Shown: positions 40,350 through 51,389 of the stretch, in pieces
Numbering within the stretch: the first letter of the stretch is position 1
Layout: every line of letters starts with the position of its first letter
Source of the DNA: Fibrobacter sp. UWP2
Lineage (GTDB): Bacteria > Fibrobacterota > Fibrobacteria > Fibrobacterales > Fibrobacteraceae
Direction of reading: 5' to 3'
NCBI RefSeq assembly: GCF_900141705.1
Contig: NZ_FQYM01000018.1
Location: forward strand, 1 to 64,000
DNA length: 64,000 bases
The notes under the pieces: model-generated
Seen by the model: only the letters and a program-made list of their open reading frames with translations
Databases searched by the model: none
What the model was told of the DNA's origin: nothing
Position numbers and translations under genes: made by a program

Positions 40350-40354
40350 GAGTG

Positions 40355-40360
40355 TATTTT
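40355..40360 (+). promoter_or_regulatory. Candidate -10 (TATTTT) of the FISUMP gene; leaderless arrangement
   Basis: TATTTT is followed by ATTCGT and ATG 40367, just after the GH5 terminator. No Shine-Dalgarno sequence is present. Confidence 0.4.
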
Positions 40361-40366
40361 ATTCGT

Positions 40367-42313
40367 ATGTTCAAACGAAATCTTCTTGTTATCCTTTTTT
40401 GCTTCACCGCAGCTATGGCTGAGGTGATCAAAATGGGTGACTTCATGGATCCGCGAGATGGTCAAAAGTACAAGACCGTGCAGATTGGGGACCAACGTTG
40501 GTTTGCCGAGAATCTTCGCTTTAAGCTCAAGGGCACGCAGTGCTACGACAACAACGAGGCGAATTGTTGGCGTTACGGACGCCTGTATACTTGGGCTGCG
40601 GCGATGCGTCTGGTGGACTGGTTTAACACCAATGAAGCATCTAAAGCCCGTAAAAATGTTCATGATGTGTGCCCGCAGGGTTGGCGCGTACCTACGAACA
40701 AGGACTGGAAAAAACTGAGGCATTTTGTAGGTAAAAGAGGCAAGAGCGATGGTGTTGGCATCAGCCTTAAATCTCAACACGGTTGGGATGTGGAACTTAG
40801 GATCCCTGCCGGTAGCGACGAGTTCGGCTTTAATGCTACGGCGGCGGGCGAACGGCATTACATTGGCTCGTTCGTTGATTTGGGGGCGTCGACGGAGTTT
40901 TGGTCTTCGAACGAGTACGATGCCTACGGGGCCTACTATTGGCGCTTGGCGTACGATTCGCGTACTTTTGACAATGTTTACGAGAGCAAGGAGTTGGCGA
41001 TTTCTGTCCGTTGCGTTGAGGAAAAGCTCTACAAAATCAAGGAACCGCCTCCGCCTCCTGTGGTGATTGTTCCCGAGGTGGTCAAGGTCCAAAACAAGGA
41101 ACTCATGACAATCCATGTGGGCGACCAGGTTTGGATGGCGAAAAACTTGGATGTGGATGTTCCGGGCAGTTTCTGTTACGGGGATGACAAGGGCAAGTGC
41201 GAAAAGTATGGTCGCCTTTACACATGGACGGCGGCGATGAACTTGCCAGATGAATATTCTCAGAAGTTTGCCCGCGATACAGTGCGGCGAATCCACCGGG
41301 GAGTTTGCCCGCTGGGCTGGCATATCCCGAGTATTTACGATTTTGAACGGTTGAACGCCTTCATACAAGATGTGGACGATGCTGTTGGCGTCGGTACGAA
41401 CCTCAAGGCGCGCGATGTTTGGCCCGAGGCGGAGAACGCCTTGCCTGGCGAAAATGGCTGGGGCTTTAGCGCCCTCCCGAGTGGCTACCGGTTGGACTTG
41501 ATGAGTTTTGTGGGCGAGGATTCCATTACGGGTTTTTGGAGTTCTTCGGAAAAGGATTCGGTGTCGAGCCTCATGTGGTCATTGTTTTACGACAGCGATG
41601 AATTGCGTAGGGACAGTTCCAACAAGGTGGGCGCCTTCCCGGTGCGCTGCGTGATGGACCCGCCTGGGGTCGACGAGATATACGACAGTACCGCCATTTA
41701 TGACGTTCGTGACGAGAACCGCTACAAGACTGTCCGCATTGGCGACCGGAACTGGATGGCGGAGAATCTGCGCTATGCGGCTCCCGGGAGCTATTGCTAC
41801 GAGGACAAGGATATCCGTTGTCGTAGTTATGGCAGGCTTTACCCGTGGCACGTGGCCATGAGGCTTCCCGAAGATTACATTGAGAACGCGACCGAAAATG
41901 CGATTTTGCCTGTACACCAAGGCATTTGCCCCGAGGGTTGGCACATGCCCAAACGCGAAGACTGGATGGCGCTGGGGCAGGCGGTTGCCAATTTGCGAAA
42001 GGGGAGTGTCGCCGCTGCGCTTAAAATGCGCGAGGGCTGGACTCGCGGAGGTGCGCCCATTACCGAGGCTTCCGGCTTCAATGCAATTCCGGCGGGTGCC
42101 CGTTACAATGACGGCGAATTCGCGGAACTTGGGTCCAGCGCCTATTTTTGGGAAGCGAGCGGTGGCGATGGCGCCGGTGCCGGCTACTGGAACTTGCTCA
42201 ACAGCAGGGATGAATACGCCCAAATGGAGGACTTCGAAAATACGGCGTTCTCTGTGAGATGCGTGCAGGATTCACTTGCCGGCGTCAAGATTGTAAAACC
42301 GGCAAAGAAGTAG
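40367..42313 (+). CDS. Secreted protein with three FISUMP (Fibrobacter major paralogous) domains
   Basis: 648 aa. The signal peptide MFKRNLLVILFCFTAAMA is followed by three tandem domains of about 200 residues. Each has the order IGDQRWFAENLR, CY, YGRLYTWAAAMRL, CPQGWRVPTNKDWKKL, a GF-A-G segment, FWSSxE and a final SVRCV (repeats near 20-220, 240-440 and 455-640). A short proline-rich linker (EPPPPPPVVIVPE) separates the first two. FISUMP domains are C-type-lectin-like and expanded in Fibrobacter; their function is unknown, with fibre or surface binding often assumed. Confidence 0.88.
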   Translation: MFKRNLLVILFCFTAAMAEVIKMGDFMDPRDGQKYKTVQIGDQRWFAENLRFKLKGTQCYDNNEANCWRYGRLYTWAAAMRLVDWFNTNEASKARKNVHDVCPQGWRVPTNKDWKKLRHFVGKRGKSDGVGISLKSQHGWDVELRIPAGSDEFGFNATAAGERHYIGSFVDLGASTEFWSSNEYDAYGAYYWRLAYDSRTFDNVYESKELAISVRCVEEKLYKIKEPPPPPVVIVPEVVKVQNKELMTIHVGDQVWMAKNLDVDVPGSFCYGDDKGKCEKYGRLYTWTAAMNLPDEYSQKFARDTVRRIHRGVCPLGWHIPSIYDFERLNAFIQDVDDAVGVGTNLKARDVWPEAENALPGENGWGFSALPSGYRLDLMSFVGEDSITGFWSSSEKDSVSSLMWSLFYDSDELRRDSSNKVGAFPVRCVMDPPGVDEIYDSTAIYDVRDENRYKTVRIGDRNWMAENLRYAAPGSYCYEDKDIRCRSYGRLYPWHVAMRLPEDYIENATENAILPVHQGICPEGWHMPKREDWMALGQAVANLRKGSVAAALKMREGWTRGGAPITEASGFNAIPAGARYNDGEFAELGSSAYFWEASGGDGAGAGYWNLLNSRDEYAQMEDFENTAFSVRCVQDSLAGVKIVKPAKK

Positions 42314-44486: not shown

Positions 44487-45050
44487 TTAGAACAGCATTT
44501 TCACGCCGATTCCAATCAGGATTACACCTGCGACGATTTCAGGAATCTTTGTTTTGAAACGCTTGGCGGCGTGACGGCCGATTTCATAGCCGATAACGCC
44601 CATGATAAAGCTTGCAAGCGCAATGGCGCTAGTGGCAAGAAGCATGTTCGCGTTCAGGAATGCAAACGAAATCCCGACAGCGAATGCGTCAATACTTGTC
44701 GCGACTGAAAGCAGCAGGATGTTTGCAATCGTCAAGTTTTTCGCGGCAATCTGTTCGCCTTCTTCTTCGCCAGAGTCACCACGAACGGCGCCCCAGATCA
44801 TGCGCCCGCCCAGAATGCAGAGAATGGTGCAGGCGATAGGCGTGCCCACTGCATTGAACCAGCGTTCCGCAAAGCCTCCCAGGAAAAATCCGAGCAATGT
44901 CATGCCGCCCTGGAATACGCCGAAACTCACAGCCTGCATAAAGGCGCGGCTGTAGCGGATTCCCGACTTGGCAAGACCTGTAGAAACGGCGACGGCGAAG
45001 CAATCCATGGCTTCTACAATCGCGATAATGATGATTTCAACAATGCCCAT
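44487..45050 (-). CDS. mntP: Manganese efflux pump MntP
   Basis: 187 aa with six hydrophobic helices. The two-fold MntP pattern is seen as EAMDCFAVAVSTGLAKSG in the first half and SIDAFAVGISFAF in the second, each with the membrane-buried aspartate, plus GGRMIWGAV and FIMGVIGYEIGRHAAKR. It exports Mn2+. The start is ATG 45050, directly after the stop of the upstream gene; earlier in-frame starts would lie inside that gene. Confidence 0.92.
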   Translation of the reverse strand: MGIVEIIIIAIVEAMDCFAVAVSTGLAKSGIRYSRAFMQAVSFGVFQGGMTLLGFFLGGFAERWFNAVGTPIACTILCILGGRMIWGAVRGDSGEEEGEQIAAKNLTIANILLLSVATSIDAFAVGISFAFLNANMLLATSAIALASFIMGVIGYEIGRHAAKRFKTKIPEIVAGVILIGIGVKMLF

Positions 45051-45051
45051 T

Positions 45052-45819
45052 TTACTTCGTGAACTTGTAGCGGCCCAACAGATCAAAGTAGCGAGCCTTG
45101 GGCGAAATCTTTACTGGAGCGCGACGCTTGTGGATGGCAGTGGTGCCGGTGGGGTAAATCATGAAATATTCGCGGGAATATTTTTCGTTGTGTCTCTTAA
45201 TGGCATAACCGTTGTCATTTTTGATATATTCCAAACTAAAATTTTTGATTTCTTTTTCTCCATATTCTTTACATTTAAAGTCATCTTGTTCATCGCTGAC
45301 AATGATTGTTTTATGTACTTCAGCGGAATCTGTTCCATAGTTGTAAGTAATGGACTTGACGAGCGAATCATTTTGAAAATAAATCTTCTCGAAAGCAATC
45401 TCGCCGTTTGGTCCATCAGGATATTGAGCGTCTAATGTTTTATTTGTGATTTTTGCGGTCTGCTGTTCGTGGACCACTCCATCATGATAATTCGTGAGGG
45501 TAATGAATAGAGTGTCTTCTGAATACTTTATTATTCCGAAATATTCAGTACCTTTTTTCGATAATACACTTTCATCGGAATTCCAATAAAAATTTATAGT
45601 ATGAATTTCTCCACCTTCTTTTGTAATAAGATAATCAAGATGTTCTTTGTTATAAATATATTTCTCTGTTGATTCATCATTGTAATAAGCGGAATCTAAG
45701 TGTGCATGGTCTTTAGTGTATATATAGTTATAAGCGTTAATTTCAAACCATGCTTCGGTGCAAGTATTCGCTGCGGCAAAACCCGCCAAAAGCATTAGGC
45801 AGAATAAGAAATTTTTCAT
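45052..45819 (-). CDS. Hypothetical secreted protein, 255 aa
   Basis: The signal peptide MKNFLFCLMLLAGFAAA precedes a mature part of beta-rich, Tyr/Asn/Lys-rich sequence with no recognised domain (INAYNYIYTKDHAHLDSAYY, EYFGIIKYSEDTLFITLTNY). The C-terminus SPKARYFDLLGRYKFTK resembles the end of type-A C-terminal sorting domains of type IX secretion (YDLLGR-like). Base composition is clearly more A+T-rich than its neighbours. It abuts mntP on the same strand and faces the cytochrome operon across a short A+T-rich promoter region (45820-45906). Confidence 0.65.
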   Translation of the reverse strand: MKNFLFCLMLLAGFAAANTCTEAWFEINAYNYIYTKDHAHLDSAYYNDESTEKYIYNKEHLDYLITKEGGEIHTINFYWNSDESVLSKKGTEYFGIIKYSEDTLFITLTNYHDGVVHEQQTAKITNKTLDAQYPDGPNGEIAFEKIYFQNDSLVKSITYNYGTDSAEVHKTIIVSDEQDDFKCKEYGEKEIKNFSLEYIKNDNGYAIKRHNEKYSREYFMIYPTGTTAIHKRRAPVKISPKARYFDLLGRYKFTK

Positions 45820-45906
45820 TTGTGTCTCCTAAACCTAAAAATAGGAATATATTTGAAAAAAAATGTTTATATTTAAGACGAATCTTGTATTCAAAAGGAT
45901 GGTGTT

Positions 45907-46272
45907 TTGAAACTGCGGGTTGCGGTCATAGTCTTTGTTTCGGTATGTGCACTTTTTGCGGTAGAGGCTTTTATGCTTCCGCCGGTTACGCCCGAACTCA
46001 AAACACAAGCCCACGAATATTTTGAAAACGAATGTCGCGGTTGCCACCGCTGGGCGCGCAAGTTTGCTGCACCCCCGATGCGCGACAATGTAGCGCAGTA
46101 TGCCGAAAAGCCGGAAGAAATGGTCAAGTACCTGATGCATCCGACTCCGCAGCACCCCGATGAATGGCCCGCCATGGAAATCACTCCGCTTACCGAAGAA
46201 CAGGCGAAAATGATGACGGCGTGGCTCCTGTACATCCTCAAGAATCCGGATGACCCGGGGAGGCCGAAGTAG
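45907..46272 (+). CDS. Monoheme c-type cytochrome (membrane-anchored or periplasmic), 121 aa
   Basis: N-terminal signal/anchor (KLRVAVIVFVSVCALFAVEA), one heme site CRGCH near residue 43, a helical body, and a likely distal Met in PAMEITPLTEEQAKMM. This is a small class I cytochrome c. The start is TTG 45907 after AAAGGATGG. It is the first of five genes with gaps of 20 and 8 bases or overlaps, encoding an electron-transfer complex. No cytochrome c maturation genes are in the window. Confidence 0.85.
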   Translation: MKLRVAVIVFVSVCALFAVEAFMLPPVTPELKTQAHEYFENECRGCHRWARKFAAPPMRDNVAQYAEKPEEMVKYLMHPTPQHPDEWPAMEITPLTEEQAKMMTAWLLYILKNPDDPGRPK

Positions 46273-46292
46273 GGGAGTTTGGTTTAAAGCCT

Positions 46293-46829
46293 ATGAAGTA
46301 CGTCGCCATCGCCATACTCGGGATGATATCCGCTTTTTTGCTTGCGGATTTCTTGTTCGGGCAGCCCCCTGCTCCTGTGCATTCGGCTTCGTTCATCCCG
46401 TTCAAGCATGCACTCCACGGCGATTCCATAGGTCTTGACTGTTCGCAGTGCCATACGGGGGCGCGTTCTGCGGCCCATGCCTTTATGCCGGCGAAGTCCG
46501 ATTGCATGGACTGCCACCGTTTGCCGCTCACCGAGAATCCTGGCATCGTGATTCTGGATTCTGCCTTGGCGCAGGCGCCCTCCGAGCCGTGGGTGTACAA
46601 GTCCCGCTTGCCCGACCACGTGGTGTTCCACCATGGGGTCCACGCCGCTGCGGGTGTCGAGTGCGCTGATTGCCATGGCCGCGGTACAAATACCCCCGGT
46701 TTCCGTAACGATGTGTACGGCGGCGAGAAGTTTAACATGAGCATGTGCCTTGCCTGCCACAGGGGCGAGACGTTCAAAGAAAAGAAGTTCAAGCCGGCCG
46801 CCACTTATTGCGGGGCCTGTCACAGGTAG
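46293..46829 (+). CDS. Pentaheme c-type cytochrome (cytochrome c3/c7-like, ActA-like), 178 aa
   Basis: N-terminal membrane anchor MKYVAIAILGMISAFLLADF followed by five CxxCH heme sites: CSQCH, CMDCH, CADCH, CLACH and CGACH. Additional histidines (FKHALHG, VFHHGVHAA) fit bis-His coordination. The number of hemes and the anchor match ActA of alternative complex III and related quinone-linked multiheme subunits. It is followed after eight bases by the Fe-S subunit gene. Confidence 0.88.
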   Translation: MKYVAIAILGMISAFLLADFLFGQPPAPVHSASFIPFKHALHGDSIGLDCSQCHTGARSAAHAFMPAKSDCMDCHRLPLTENPGIVILDSALAQAPSEPWVYKSRLPDHVVFHHGVHAAAGVECADCHGRGTNTPGFRNDVYGGEKFNMSMCLACHRGETFKEKKFKPAATYCGACHR

Positions 46830-46837
46830 GTGTTGTT

Positions 46838-47725
46838 ATGGACAGGCGTGAATTTTTAAAGTGGTGTGCGGTCATGGCGGCGGGCTATACGCTCATTGGC
46901 TGCAGGGACGCGGCTTCGGTCGGAACGCTCGGCAAAAAAATTCCGTCCATTGCCGACTTTGAGGCGGAAGTCCGCAGGGCCGTGGCGCAGGGAAGTAAAG
47001 CCTTTGAATTGGTATTGGTCCCCATGCCCGGTAAAAATTCTTTGAACGGCAACCGCTTTGGCATGGCAATAGACCTGGACGCCTGCGATGCGTGCGGCAA
47101 GTGCATTCTCGCTTGCAACATGGAGAACAACGTGCCGCTGGTGACCGAGGAGGAGGCCGCGAAGAACCGCTTTATGCACTGGATTCGCATGTGCGGCGGC
47201 ATCCCCCTCATGTGCGCCCATTGCGGCAACGCCCCGTGCGAAAAAGTTTGCCCCACGGGTGCCGCGAACCATACTCCCGACGGTTTGAGCGCCATGATGT
47301 ACAAGCGTTGTGCCGGCAGCCGTTTTTGCGGGGCGAACTGCCCCCTGCATGCCCGAAAGTTCAATTACAACGATGCCGAATCCCTCGGGCTTTTGCGCAA
47401 GTTCAACGACGAGGTCCCGGTGCGTGGCAAGGGCGTGATGGAAAAGTGCTCCCTGTGCATCCAGCGTTTGCAAAACGACCGCTTGCGCTTTAAAACGGAA
47501 GTCGCCGCCGAAGCGGTGGTTGCGGGGAAACCGCCCGCGGAATGGCGGGGACGTGGTGTCAAGACTGCCTGCGCCGAGGCGTGCCCCAAGAATGCCATTG
47601 TTTTTGGAAACTGGCTTGACGACAATAGCGAGTTGGTCCGCGCGGCCAAGGGACGCGGACTCTATGCGCCTGCTGTCGTGGCAGGGCTCGATCCCTCGGT
47701 GGTCTATATGCGGGGACGTCGCTGA
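46838..47725 (+). CDS. Tat-type four-cluster ferredoxin subunit (NrfC/ActB2-like)
   Basis: 295 aa. The N-terminus has a twin-arginine motif (DRREFLKW) and ends in a lipobox-like LIGC, suggesting Tat export of the folded protein and possible lipidation. Four Fe-S sites can be assigned from CDACGKCILAC, CAHCGNAPCEKVCP, CAGSRFCGANCP and CSLCIQRL with CAEACP, as in NrfC, DmsB and the C-terminal half of ActB. No molybdopterin-type subunit gene accompanies it. The start is ATG 46838; its TGA stop shares a base with the next ATG (TGATG). Confidence 0.88.
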   Translation: MDRREFLKWCAVMAAGYTLIGCRDAASVGTLGKKIPSIADFEAEVRRAVAQGSKAFELVLVPMPGKNSLNGNRFGMAIDLDACDACGKCILACNMENNVPLVTEEEAAKNRFMHWIRMCGGIPLMCAHCGNAPCEKVCPTGAANHTPDGLSAMMYKRCAGSRFCGANCPLHARKFNYNDAESLGLLRKFNDEVPVRGKGVMEKCSLCIQRLQNDRLRFKTEVAAEAVVAGKPPAEWRGRGVKTACAEACPKNAIVFGNWLDDNSELVRAAKGRGLYAPAVVAGLDPSVVYMRGRR

Positions 47726-49509
47726 TGTTCTTGCTGTTGGAATTGGTTGGATTGACTCTGGTTTTGCCGGGCCTTGCCGCGGTGGGCTATGCCGTATGGC
47801 AGGGGCCTGTGGCGTGGGATGCGGACTTGCGTACCTTTTGGGGGACTCCAATTAGTTTGTTTGTATTCTGGATTGGTCTTGCCCATGCGGGGACGCTCCT
47901 CTCGGCTGTTTTTTTGGCGTTGAACGTAAAGCTGGACCGCCGCACGGCGCTGCTCGCGGAACTTTCGACCTTGGTGAGCCTTTTGATTGCGATGCTTTTC
48001 CCGCTGGTGCACCTAGGGATTATCGGCAACTTTTACATGGTAGCCCCTTTACTGGATGCCCGCGGCGTTTTTGCCAACATGCGTTCGCCTTTGGTGTGGG
48101 ATCTTTGCTGCATCTTGATTTATGGAATCCTTTCGCTGTTGTTTTTCGCCATACATTTGGCGGCGCGTCCTTCTCAGGATTTAGAAAATCCTTCGGGGTG
48201 TGCCGACGCGGTTTCGGCGGCGCGGGACGTGTTGACTAAAATTCGCAGGCCCATGGCGTGGTTGCTCTTCCCGCTGGTGCTTTGGGTGCATACCATCGTG
48301 AGTCTTGATTTTGCGACGACGTTTGTGCCCGAGTGGCGCGGGTCGTTTTTCCCGTTGTACTTTATTGCCGGGGCGATTTTCTCGGGACTCTCGCTGGTGA
48401 ATCTGCTTCTTTCGGCCGAAAACTACCGGGTTCGTCTGCTTGAAAAGCTGATGCTTGCGTGCAGCTGGATTATGATCGCCTTCTGGCTTTGGAATTTTGC
48501 GCTGAAGGGTGATTTTTGTGTTTCGTCCTTCATTTTTGCAGGCATCCTTCCGCAACTCTTTTTTGTGGAGGCAGTTCGTGAATCCAAAATAGGCTGGAGG
48601 ATGATTTGCGGTTCGGTGCTGGTGGGGATGCTCTTGGAACGCGTCTTTTTGGTGGCTCCATCCGAGAGCCAGTCAAAGCTCGCAAACGGCTTTGGATGGG
48701 TGGACTACGGATTGCTTGCATTTGGCGTAGGACTCTTCCTCTTGGTGTTTTTTGCCATTCGCAGAAGGTTTTCCGGGATAATCGAGAATGACGAACTTAT
48801 GATGGGCGATGTGGACGAGAGCAAAACTACGGACGATTTGGACTCTGCCGAAGTGGCTCCCAACGAGTATTTCCCGCCTCTTACGACCCCGGAATTCAGG
48901 ACCTTGCGGCTTCCGCTTCTTTGCGGCATTTTGGTGGCGCTCCTGTTTTGCATTTGGGCGGCACAGAATTGTGTGCAAAATAGTATTGACCTCGCACTCA
49001 TTTCGCTAATCCCTGTGACGTTCCCGATTGTCGCCTTTTTTGCGGGAATCATGCTGTGCGTGATACCCCTGTGGCAAGTGTGCCCCTCATGGTTGCGTTG
49101 GGCATTGTCTGCGGCTTTGATTGCCCTGGGGGGAGGTCTCGGGTTCGTTTACGCCGGAGGCTCCTCGGTTCCGGCCAAAGAGATTATGCGCGAAACTCGT
49201 GCGGAGCACTCGACGACTTTTGATTCCCGTGCACACGCCTCGCTTGTATGGGCGTCCCGTTGCGCTGCCTGCCATGGTGTTGACGGCAAGTTCAACGAAA
49301 AGTTCGTTCGTGAATTTTACCCTGTGCCTCAAAAGTTGACGCTCCAGCGTCTTGATTCGCTGGGCGAGGATTCGCTGGTGCAGGTGATTTTGAATGGCCG
49401 CGTGAACATGAACCCCTATGGGGACCGCTTGAGTGAGGACGAGGCTCGCGGCTTGGTGCGTTACATGCGCGCGCTTGCTACGGCAGATTCGGTGGAGGCG
49501 GCTCCATGA
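47725..49509 (+). CDS. NrfD/ActC-like quinone-interacting membrane subunit fused to a monoheme cytochrome c domain
   Basis: 594 aa. The first 350 residues carry ten helices with ActC-like motifs: FVFWIGLAHAGTLLSAVFLA, MLFPLVHLG and VSLDFATTFVPEWRGSFFPL. A linker (ENDELMMGDVDESKTTDD) leads to three more helices (about 393-478) and then a periplasmic cytochrome c domain with heme site RCAACHG and a likely axial Met in NMNPYG. It would pass quinol electrons to the attached hemes or the pentaheme subunit. The fusion of NrfD-type, three-helix and cytochrome parts in one chain is unusual. Confidence 0.85.
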   Translation: MFLLLELVGLTLVLPGLAAVGYAVWQGPVAWDADLRTFWGTPISLFVFWIGLAHAGTLLSAVFLALNVKLDRRTALLAELSTLVSLLIAMLFPLVHLGIIGNFYMVAPLLDARGVFANMRSPLVWDLCCILIYGILSLLFFAIHLAARPSQDLENPSGCADAVSAARDVLTKIRRPMAWLLFPLVLWVHTIVSLDFATTFVPEWRGSFFPLYFIAGAIFSGLSLVNLLLSAENYRVRLLEKLMLACSWIMIAFWLWNFALKGDFCVSSFIFAGILPQLFFVEAVRESKIGWRMICGSVLVGMLLERVFLVAPSESQSKLANGFGWVDYGLLAFGVGLFLLVFFAIRRRFSGIIENDELMMGDVDESKTTDDLDSAEVAPNEYFPPLTTPEFRTLRLPLLCGILVALLFCIWAAQNCVQNSIDLALISLIPVTFPIVAFFAGIMLCVIPLWQVCPSWLRWALSAALIALGGGLGFVYAGGSSVPAKEIMRETRAEHSTTFDSRAHASLVWASRCAACHGVDGKFNEKFVREFYPVPQKLTLQRLDSLGEDSLVQVILNGRVNMNPYGDRLSEDEARGLVRYMRALATADSVEAAP

Positions 49510-49952
49510 CGCTTTTGTTCCATGCGCTTGCCTGCCTTATGGCCCTTGGACTTGCCGGTTTCTTGTGGCGAGGGCGTATTTCCCTGTTCAAGGAGTCCCT
49601 CCTCATGATTGGCTTTTTGCTGGTCTTTGGTGTGTATACTTTTTTGGCGGGGGATGTGGCCGACCCCACGATGGAGCACTACCCGTTCCGCATGTTGGCG
49701 CTTTGCCTCTGTTTTTCGACGACGGCGCTCCCGCACAAACGCAGGCGTTACCTGGTGCTTGCCCAGGCGATGTGGCTTTGGGTCGAGTTCTTTGGGGCGC
49801 TTGTATTGTTTTATCGCGGGTTCGACGTACCCTGGGTTCGAATCGCCTCGATTTTTGTGGTCGGCTTTGGCAGCTGTTTTCTCTCTAGAATCAACCGCGA
49901 AATGGAATTCTGCCTGATGGTGTTTTGGATTGCCATCTGGGTGTTCTTCTAG
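49506..49952 (+). CDS. Small integral membrane protein of the cytochrome operon, 148 aa
   Basis: About five hydrophobic helices (HALACLMALGLAGFLW, LLMIGFLLVFGVYTFLAG, RMLALCLCFSTTAL, MWLWVEFFGALVLFY, FCLMVFWIAIWVFF) and no cofactor motif. The start overlaps the previous stop by four bases (ATGA), so it is translated together with the NrfD-cytochrome fusion and is probably an accessory subunit of the complex. No family is recognised. Confidence 0.7.
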   Translation: MTLLFHALACLMALGLAGFLWRGRISLFKESLLMIGFLLVFGVYTFLAGDVADPTMEHYPFRMLALCLCFSTTALPHKRRRYLVLAQAMWLWVEFFGALVLFYRGFDVPWVRIASIFVVGFGSCFLSRINREMEFCLMVFWIAIWVFF

Positions 49953-50006: not shown

Positions 50007-51389
50007 GTGAACTTGAAGGGGTTTGTTGTTTTTGGAGCGTACGTTTTGATGCTTTGTTCCTGCGGCGATAGTGGTTCAGGGACAAACGCCGACGAAGCTG
50101 GCAACGGTTCAAACAAGGGTGGATCGTCGAATACCGTCAATCCTTCAAATGACAATGGATCCTCGATGGCGACATTTATCGAGGACCCGCGCGACGGCAA
50201 TGTTTATGCGGTCAAAAAAATCGGTGACGCCCTTTGGATGACCGAGAACCTGCGAATCAAGGACACGCTCGCTTACCCCATGGACGCGGACTCCACCAAG
50301 TGCCCGGGTGACTCGACCGAGGCCTCTTGCCAAAAAATGGGTCGCCTTTACAAGTGGATGACGGCCGTGAACAATAATCAAAGTACCGACACCAACAGCG
50401 GAATTTGCCCACCGGGCTGGAGACTCCCTAACGATAAGGATTTTTCGGCAATGGTGAGCTCCCTGGGTTCAAACGACACGTTGCTCTACAAGAAGTTCCA
50501 AAAAAACGGTTGGCTCAATGAGGAGGATAGCTCCAGCATTTACTGGAGTACCTACTATAGCGACTACATGTCGCAACCCGGGGGCTTTATAAGGCGACGT
50601 GGCCTGCATGCCATAACCGTTTTGAAAATGATTAAGGGGTATAGAAGTGTAGTCTACATGGACTATGGTTTTTTGGATGATTACGGCTATGTGCGTTGCC
50701 TGCAAAACCCTGAGGCGGACTCCATCAAGGATTACGACGACTTTCTTGCGAACAAGGCCAAAAGAACGGAATATATTAGGAGTACACTAGAGGGCGCAAA
50801 ACGCTACATGAACAAGGAATTGAAATACGGTTCCTTTGTGGATGAACGCGACGGGAACGAATACTACACCATAAAAATCGGGGAACAAAAGTGGATGGCG
50901 GAGAACCTGAGGTATTTTCCCGGGGATGAATATTATAAGACCTACTGGGATTACGTTTGCTATTCGCAGTGCTCCCATGAGGATTCGGTGGACTATTACA
51001 CGAATGGAGTCGCGTACGAGTCCAGTTGGGCATTCCCGCAGTCCGACACGGTCGGGCCTGTGTGCCCTTCTGGCTGGAGGATCCCCTCCAAGGACGACTG
51101 GGATGAACTGCGTATGAACGCCGATACGGACCAGGCGCTGCTGGCAACGGGGAGTCTCTGGGAATCGGCTTTGAATACGACAGGTTTTACGGCGATGCCC
51201 ACTTCGAGCGACAAAACCTCCGGTGTTGACCCCTTTGCCGAAACGAGGTTCTTCACTTCGGAGCTGAGCGCTGGAGAGAACGTGGACGACGAAAATCCCA
51301 AATACAAGACGCTGTATTACTACTGGTTCGATGACGGTTTCACATACTCGGACGCCAACGCCGCCTATATCCGCTGTATCCAGGAATAA
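50007..51389 (+). CDS. Lipoprotein with two FISUMP domains
   Basis: 460 aa. Signal peptide with lipobox (LMLCSCGD), a Gly/Ser/Asn-rich linker of about 35 residues, and two FISUMP domains (about 50-235 and 270-460). The domains show IGDALWMTENLRI and IGEQKWMAENLRY, MGRLYKWMTAV, CPPGWRLPNDKDF and CPSGWRIPSKDDW, and end in YVRCLQ and YIRCIQE. The start is GTG 50007, eight bases after a strong AGGAGG. It stands alone, with an A+T-rich promoter-like region (TTATATTTTGG) before it and a converging gene behind it. Confidence 0.87.
   Translation: MNLKGFVVFGAYVLMLCSCGDSGSGTNADEAGNGSNKGGSSNTVNPSNDNGSSMATFIEDPRDGNVYAVKKIGDALWMTENLRIKDTLAYPMDADSTKCPGDSTEASCQKMGRLYKWMTAVNNNQSTDTNSGICPPGWRLPNDKDFSAMVSSLGSNDTLLYKKFQKNGWLNEEDSSSIYWSTYYSDYMSQPGGFIRRRGLHAITVLKMIKGYRSVVYMDYGFLDDYGYVRCLQNPEADSIKDYDDFLANKAKRTEYIRSTLEGAKRYMNKELKYGSFVDERDGNEYYTIKIGEQKWMAENLRYFPGDEYYKTYWDYVCYSQCSHEDSVDYYTNGVAYESSWAFPQSDTVGPVCPSGWRIPSKDDWDELRMNADTDQALLATGSLWESALNTTGFTAMPTSSDKTSGVDPFAETRFFTSELSAGENVDDENPKYKTLYYYWFDDGFTYSDANAAYIRCIQE

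What the first reader, a model, noticed from the sequence alone, without database searches (positions are those of the whole stretch)
45907..49952. Compact five-gene redox complex resembling a stripped-down alternative complex III
Seen: monoheme cytochrome, pentaheme cytochrome with membrane anchor, Tat-exported four-cluster Fe-S protein, NrfD-type ten-helix protein and a small membrane protein, all within 4 kb with overlaps or gaps of 20 bases or less. Known: ActA (five hemes), ActB (Fe-S half) and ActC (NrfD-like) are core parts of alternative complex III, and Qrc and Nrf complexes use similar modules. Inferred: a quinone-linked electron-transfer complex that lacks the molybdopterin-like ActB1 and a separate ActF. 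Such a set is unexpected in an anaerobic fermenter that is thought to rely on fumarate reduction.
Basis: partly seen in the sequence, partly recalled or inferred. Interest (0 to 1): 0.75.

Follow-up and report, generated by a model that had tools for sequence, protein, structure and literature searches.

The report
Stripped-down respiratory complex in Fibrobacter
The five genes encode a cut-down relative of alternative complex III, a membrane machine known mainly from oxygen-breathing bacteria, conserved in most species of a gut genus said to lack a respiratory chain, with no recognised enzyme to take its electrons.

Summary
The NrfD-like protein is a fusion: an ActC domain, three extra membrane helices and a C-terminal ActE-like monohaem cytochrome c. 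The Fe-S protein carries a lipobox as well as a twin-arginine motif. Sequence searches, a tree and fold matches place the set with alternative complex III (ACIII), not Nrf, Tmc, Psr or Qrc. ActA, the Fe-S half of ActB, ActC and an ActE domain are present. No ActB1-type (molybdopterin-fold) gene was found in the genome, and no ActD or ActF relative in the operon; instead there is a six-helix protein with no detectable relative. The quinol-site residues and the central Glu-Arg pair are invariant in 32 homologues.

The set was found only in Fibrobacteraceae (60 of 80 species of the genus, plus F. intestinalis ATCC 43854). It is inherited and lost together with the Ccs maturation protein and an unlinked monohaem cytochrome c. 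Haem-copper oxidase, bd oxidase, NrfA and CCP/MauG were sought and not found, so the electron acceptor is unknown. In 17 species only an altered ActC plus the six-helix gene remain, under purifying selection. A 2016 study stated that Fibrobacteraceae lack major respiratory-chain components. Best reading: a reduced menaquinol:cytochrome c oxidoreductase. No biochemistry supports this yet.

The parts
45907..46272 (+). P1: exported monohaem class I cytochrome c (121 aa, TTG start), c551/c555-like; likely soluble electron carrier
   Evidence: CxxCH at aa 43-47; profile of five homologues hits cytochromes c555, c551 and Rhodothermus cytochrome c in the PDB; same start in relatives; missing from the operon in the F. 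intestinalis group
46293..46829 (+). P2: pentahaem cytochrome c with N-terminal membrane anchor, ActA-type
   Evidence: five CxxCH; PDB 8k9e_A, 6f0k_A, 6lod_A at E 1e-20 to 1e-19; haem ligands invariant with canonical Fibrobacterota ActA
46838..47725 (+). P3: four-cluster Fe-S protein with RR motif and lipobox, equivalent to the B2 half of ActB; no B1 half
   Evidence: PDB 6f0k_B residues 795-1021, E 4e-45; 15 cluster Cys plus lipobox Cys invariant in A3; 295 aa against about 1050-1110 aa for canonical ActB
47725..49509 (+). P4: ActC-type NrfD subunit fused to three further membrane helices and a C-terminal ActE-like monohaem cytochrome c
   Evidence: PDB 6btm_C E 2e-54 and 6f0k_C E 5e-51 with profile A9; fold match to ActC of four ACIII structures; hhalign to ActE 97.4%, E 1e-11
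47725..48780 (+). ActC domain (about aa 1-352): quinol site W39, H96, S121, D126, D195; gate pair E305-R306; H54, E79, H189
   Evidence: invariant in 32 homologues; mapped on R. marinus ActC numbering from the direct alignment and the published residues
48889..49158 (+). three-helix segment (about aa 389-478), no detectable relative; sits where ActD would be but no similarity to ActD was found
   Evidence: AF2 helices 389-418, 425-452, 455-477; hhalign to ActD 0.1%
49192..49506 (+). ActE-like monohaem cytochrome c domain (about aa 490-594); CxxCH at 49261-49275, invariant Met562
   Evidence: Pfam CBB3 and Cytochrom_C above cut-off; hhalign to ActE; invariant C513, C516, H517, M562
49506..49952 (+). 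P5: six-helix membrane protein of 148 aa, no known family or fold
   Evidence: no Pfam or NCBIfam match; AF2 pLDDT 90, no PDB fold match with E under 1; not ActF or ActD by hhalign

Best explanation
A reduced ACIII. The ActC domain of P4 oxidises menaquinol at a periplasm-facing site. Electrons pass to the 3Fe-4S cluster of the ActB2-type lipoprotein P3, then through the five haems of the ActA-type protein P2 to the ActE-type haem fused to P4, and from there to small monohaem cytochromes c (P1 and an unlinked one at G000:C3:96248-96691). Ccs matures all these cytochromes. P5 and the three extra helices of P4 stand where ActF and ActD would be. Shown by sequence: homology, cofactor ligands, quinol-site residues, co-inheritance. 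Inferred: assembly as one complex, the direction of electron flow, charge separation through ActC. Unknown: what finally oxidises the cytochromes; no haem-copper oxidase, bd oxidase, NrfA or CCP/MauG peroxidase was found. The proposed coupling triad of canonical ACIII (ActD Glu122, ActC Ser245, ActF Tyr284) is missing, so proton pumping, if any, would have to use ActC alone.
For: Sequence and profile matches to all four solved ACIII structures; fold match of P4 to ActC at E 3e-10 to 1e-8, ahead of ActF and PsrC; ML tree places P4 inside ActC, away from ActF (100/100); quinol-site His96, Ser121, Asp126, Asp195 and gate Glu305-Arg306 invariant in 32 sequences; 15 cluster cysteines kept; C-terminal domain matches ActE. 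Co-inheritance within the genus: CcsA in 58 of 60 compact genomes and 0 of 17 remnant ones; unlinked cytochrome c in 59 of 60 and 0 of 17. P1 resembles c551/c555 carriers and R. marinus cytochrome c.
Against: No acceptor enzyme found: haem-copper oxidase 0 of 80 in the genus, no real NrfA, no CCP/MauG in 111 family genomes, no real bd oxidase in the genus. Without an acceptor, quinol oxidation is a dead end unless something unknown is present. ActB1, ActD and ActF, standard ACIII parts, are absent. No experiment or expression data. All genes downstream of the quinone pool other than those searched remain unexamined.
Confidence: 0.62

Rival explanations
1. It runs the other way, like Qrc: periplasmic cytochromes c, reduced by a donor enzyme, feed electrons through P2 and P3 to menaquinone, supporting fumarate reduction.
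For: Fits an anaerobe thought to use fumarate (knowledge). P2's best NCBIfam model is QrcA, and QrcC is second for P3 (both below cut-off). Qrc also has NrfD, Fe-S and multihaem modules and works toward quinone (PMC6303296). No oxidising acceptor was found.
Against: The subunit matches are to ACIII, not Qrc. The ActE-type haem and class I monohaem cytochromes are the kind that accept electrons from quinol complexes (general knowledge). No molybdopterin-type formate dehydrogenase exists in the genome to act as donor. Periplasmic hydrogenase was not searched for.
Confidence: 0.23
2. It is a quinol-linked oxygen or peroxide scavenging path in a strict anaerobe, with an acceptor that is a non-haem or otherwise unrecognised enzyme, not an energy-conserving chain.
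For: Gut anaerobes meet oxygen; ACIII is otherwise tied to aerobic respiration (PMC10100899). Loss with Ccs and the soluble cytochrome as one unit in 17 species suggests a dispensable, conditional function.
Against: No gene for such an acceptor has been pointed out; no genetic linkage to oxidative-stress genes near the operon or the unlinked cytochrome, whose neighbours are a carbohydrate esterase and a GGDEF protein.
Confidence: 0.1
3. It belongs to another NrfD family such as Nrf, Tmc/Hmc, Psr, Dsr or Nhc, and the ACIII likeness is superficial.
For: NCBIfam gives DsrO and QrcC for P3 below their cut-offs.
Against: P4 matches ActC of all four ACIII structures and PsrC only at fold E 0.01; the tree nests it in ActC with Fibrobacterota canonical ActC; a pentahaem ActA-type protein and an ActE-type domain accompany it. 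The tree lacked Nrf, Qrc and Dsr sequences.
Confidence: 0.04

Closest known systems
Alternative complex III (ACIII, ActABCDEF), Rhodothermus, Flavobacterium, Chloroflexus
   Same: ActA pentahaem cytochrome, four-cluster ActB2 half, ActC with its quinol site and Glu-Arg gate, ActE-type monohaem; nested in the ActC tree
   Different: no ActB1 domain, no recognisable ActD or ActF, ActE fused to ActC through three new helices, extra six-helix P5, extra carrier P1, coupling residue Ser245 of ActC replaced by Trp187, no oxidase in the genome
Canonical ACIII of other Fibrobacterota families (loci L047, L048, L050)
   Same: nearest canonical relatives within the phylum; same subunit order A-B-C
   Different: full-length ActB (about 1050-1110 aa in L047, L048), separate ActD, ActE and ActF, followed by caa3-type oxidase genes in L047 and L048
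Qrc (QrcABCD) of sulfate reducers
   Same: membrane-anchored multihaem cytochrome, Fe-S subunit and NrfD-type subunit; weak model hits
   Different: Qrc reduces quinone, has the QrcB molybdopterin-fold subunit, no fused monohaem cytochrome; hits below curated cut-offs

Membership tests
Alternative complex III | ActA pentahaem cytochrome c with membrane anchor | tested here: met
   five CxxCH, N-terminal helix, PDB ActA at E 1e-20
Alternative complex III | ActB with cofactor-free molybdopterin-fold half B1 | tested here: not met
   P3 is 295 aa; no PF00384 match in the whole genome
Alternative complex III | ActB2 half with one 3Fe-4S and three 4Fe-4S clusters | tested here: met
   15 cluster cysteines conserved with canonical ActB
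Alternative complex III | ActC, ten-helix NrfD type with periplasm-side quinol site | tested here: met
   profile, fold and tree agree; site residues invariant
Alternative complex III | ActE monohaem cytochrome c | tested here: met
   present as a domain fused to ActC, not as a separate lipoprotein
Alternative complex III | ActD with coupling glutamate | tested here: not met
   three helices in its place show no similarity to ActD; profiles were shallow
Alternative complex III | ActF, second NrfD-type subunit | tested here: not met
   P5 is 148 aa, no similarity to ActF by profile or fold; no second ActC-like match in the genome
Alternative complex III | quinol:cytochrome c (or HiPIP) oxidoreductase activity | not testable with these tools
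   needs enzyme assays
Qrc complex | QrcA, QrcC, QrcD models above curated cut-offs, with QrcB | tested here: not met
   QrcA 71 of 180 bits, QrcC 133 of 400 bits; QrcB-type fold absent
Nrf (NrfABCD) | NrfA nitrite reductase and NrfC/NrfD equivalogs | tested here: not met
   no NrfA in the genome; NrfC 73 of 378 bits

The most novel reading that the evidence does not exclude
Most Fibrobacter species, described as lacking major respiratory-chain components, keep a working cytochrome c-based electron-transport chain built on a minimal ACIII that needs neither ActB1 nor ActF, and pass its electrons to an acceptor enzyme that is not yet known. In one sub-lineage the ActC/P5 pair outlived the loss of all its redox partners and took on a new, non-redox membrane function.
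Probability: 0.4. Interest if true: 0.78.

Novelty: new variant of a known kind. Interest (0 to 1): 0.64.

Why it matters
ACIII has been discussed as an aerobic-respiration complex (PMC10100899) and Fibrobacteraceae as lacking major electron-transport components (PMC4704652). A conserved, co-inherited ACIII-like module in 60 of 80 Fibrobacter species, including a cultured type strain, questions both and makes a physiological question testable in a major gut cellulose degrader: what does it respire? The compact form is a natural deletion experiment, suggesting that ActB1, ActD and ActF are not needed for the redox core. The remnant form, with purifying selection on ActC and P5 after loss of quinol-site and gate residues, goes against the statement that NrfD-type proteins always pair with an Fe-S subunit (PMC6303296).

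Tried and rejected
P4 helices 11-13 as ActD: suggested by a short motif, rejected by hhalign (0.1%). P5 as a shortened ActF or as ActD: no support, no PDB fold match. P1 as the ActE equivalent: weak (63%); the fused P4 domain is the better match, and P1 looks like a diffusible carrier. ActB1 encoded elsewhere: not found. Misassembly or MAG artefact: rejected, since the operon is in about 60 genomes, a one-contig genome (G144) and the isolate F. intestinalis ATCC 43854. Further c-type cytochromes: Pfam searches found only P2, P4 and one unlinked protein (P1 falls below the threshold). Of 212 CxxCH DNA hits genome-wide the first 100 were listed; 93 pattern occurrences in the stretches taken around most of them were checked for coding frame, and gave only zinc-finger or radical-SAM-like motifs and one lipoprotein of unclear nature. 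The stretches taken were not analysed, and the unlisted hits were not seen.
Full report
Anatomy. Five ORFs form a tight + strand operon: P1 45907-46272, P2 46293-46829, P3 46838-47725, P4 47725-49509, P5 49506-49952. P1 is an exported monohaem cytochrome c. P2 has five CxxCH motifs and one N-terminal hydrophobic helix. P3 has an RR motif, a lipobox and the cysteines for four Fe-S clusters. P4 has ten NrfD-type helices, three further helices and a C-terminal cytochrome c domain (AF2 helices; hydropathy). P5 has six predicted helices. The operon encodes seven c-type haem sites.

Identity. P3 matches the C-terminal Fe-S half of ActB in solved ACIII (6f0k_B 795-1021, E 4e-45). P2 matches ActA (E 1e-20). 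P4 matches ActC (E 3e-31 alone; E 2e-54 with a 32-row profile). The predicted P4 fold finds ActC of all four ACIII structures first, then ActF, then PsrC. A maximum-likelihood tree puts P4 and its relatives in one clade (100/100) inside ActC, near canonical ActC of other Fibrobacterota families and one Kapabacteria sequence, with ActF separate at 100/100. That tree had no Nrf, Qrc or Dsr sequences, so exclusion of those rests on the searches. The P4 cytochrome domain matches ActE (97.4%, E 1e-11).

What is missing. No ActB1: P3 has 295 residues where canonical ActB has about 1000, and no molybdopterin-fold match exists in the genome. No ActD or ActF similarity was found in P4's extra helices or in P5, and P5 has no fold match in the PDB. 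The ActD and ActF profiles had two and three sequences, so distant homology is not strictly excluded.

Active-site residues. Using the direct alignment to R. marinus ActC and the published residues (PMC5928083; PMC8076601), the quinol-site residues Trp82, His139, Ser164, Asp169 and Asp253 correspond to W39, H96, S121, D126 and D195 of P4. The central Glu394-Arg395 pair corresponds to E305-R306, and His97, Glu122 and His247 to H54, E79 and H189. All are invariant in 32 compact sequences. Arg114 and Arg119 of the cytoplasmic half-channel are not conserved at the same positions. Ser245, one of three residues proposed to couple quinol oxidation to proton transfer, is Trp187 here, and the other two lie in ActD and ActF, which are not found. 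Electron transfer therefore looks intact, while the published coupling idea cannot apply as it stands.

Distribution. In the phylum sample 101 of 168 genomes have a P4 match. Within the window's genus 60 of 80 have the compact fused form, 17 a short form and 3 none (all three incomplete at 62-71%). Related genera of the family (g5, g6, g10) have the compact form; g6 includes F. intestinalis ATCC 43854, whose operon lacks P1. In 29 of 29 genus loci the order A-B2-CE-P5 holds. Hits in other phyla (Acidobacteria, Myxococcales, Armatimonadota, Bacteroidota and others) have a long ActB and separate ActC and ActE wherever the locus was complete enough to tell, so the compact form appears confined to Fibrobacteraceae. 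Other Fibrobacterota families have canonical ACIII, in two loci followed by caa3 oxidase genes.

Co-inheritance. The Ccs maturation protein (ResB-CcsA-like, 706 aa, C1) is present in 58 of 60 compact genomes and 0 of 17 short-form genomes. An unlinked monohaem cytochrome c (C3:96248-96691) is present in 59 of 60 and 0 of 17, and also in every g5, g6 and g10 genome that carries the operon. Fisher p is 3e-15 and 4e-16; the genomes are related and the tree suggests a single loss, so these p-values overstate independence. The three compact genomes that lack one item are 71-85% complete.

No known acceptor. In the genus, haem-copper oxidase 0 of 80, NrfA none above cut-off, CCP/MauG 0 of 111 in the family, bd oxidase none above cut-off (present in genus g4, which lacks the operon). 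The window genome also has no further cytochrome of the CBB3 or C7 type. Not searched for want of calls: N2O reductase, copper nitrite reductase, multicopper oxidases, [NiFe] hydrogenases.

The remnant. In 17 genus genomes only a 414-426 aa ActC-like protein remains; in the five examined P5 follows it, at the same locus beside MntP and LigA. In those five His54 is Gln, His96 and the Ser121 loop are lost, His189 is Val and Glu305-Arg306 is Lys-Cys. No Fe-S or cytochrome gene is adjacent, and Ccs is absent. Yet dN/dS is about 0.07-0.12 for ActC and 0.04-0.10 for P5 (dS 0.9-1.7, near saturation, so approximate). The tree nests it within the compact forms (95/86). This is not a decaying pseudogene; ActC and P5 appear to keep a shared function that no longer needs redox chemistry. 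It also supports P5 as a true partner of ActC.

Mechanism. Most likely menaquinol is oxidised at ActC, electrons pass through the P3 clusters and P2 haems to the fused ActE-type haem and then to P1 or the unlinked cytochrome. Homology, ligands and co-inheritance are shown; complex assembly, direction and energy coupling are inferred; the acceptor is unknown. The chief rival is the reverse, Qrc-like direction, feeding menaquinone and fumarate reduction. I favour oxidation because the subunits are ACIII-type and the carriers are class I monohaem cytochromes, but the missing acceptor keeps this at about 0.6.

Compared with the literature. A 2016 phylogenomic study states that Fibrobacteraceae lack major electron-transport components and are incapable of growth by respiration (PMC4704652). 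A 2023 study treats ActB as exclusively aerobic (PMC10100899). The 2021 survey of NrfD-type subunits does not list Fibrobacteres among phyla with ActC (PMC8076601). Four held papers mention both ACIII and Fibrobacter, but their titles concern other organisms and I did not read them for this. Subscription papers could not be searched, so prior notice cannot be excluded.

Verdict. A real, conserved, reduced ACIII variant; not a canonical member, because B1, D and F fail the test. Its interest lies in the organism, the missing acceptor and the remnant form.

Noticed in passing
loci L036-L040 (G060, G105, G101, G104, G067): Remnant form: ActC-like protein plus P5 only, quinol-site and gate residues lost, no cytochrome or Fe-S gene adjacent, still under purifying selection.
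   Followed up: partly
window 44487-46272 against 46290-49952: Against sister genomes (e.g. L100) the upstream flank and P1 are 88-97% identical in DNA while most of P2-P5 is about 71-77%, with a sharp change after the P1 stop and 81-83% in much of the downstream flank: looks like within-genus replacement of the P2-P5 block.
   Followed up: partly
L057:8248-8691 (G000:C3:96248-96691, - strand): Unlinked monohaem cytochrome c that tracks the operon across the family; it lies divergent from a GDSL/CE2-type esterase gene in 10 of 10 genomes compared.
   Followed up: yes
L001:1396-3516 (G000:C1): A 706-aa ResB-CcsA-like fused cytochrome c maturation protein; some relatives have a shorter open frame (about 515-555 aa).
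   Followed up: partly
L076 and L079: Two contigs of one MAG labelled Kiritimatiellae (RGIG6720) carry Fibrobacter-type compact operons at 52-53% identity; probably mis-binned contigs.
   Followed up: no
window 40352-42313 and 50007-51389: FISUMP-type (Fib_succ_major) proteins flank the region; the second was confirmed by Pfam, the first judged by eye from its sequence.
   Followed up: partly
L133: Deltaproteobacterial locus with a 407-aa ActB2-type ORF, suggesting a split ActB; the B1 half upstream was not checked.
   Followed up: no
L103, L105, L106, L112 and L041-L043, L045: P1 is missing from the operon in the F. intestinalis group while P2-P5 and the unlinked cytochrome are kept, so P1 is not essential to the core.
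   Followed up: partly
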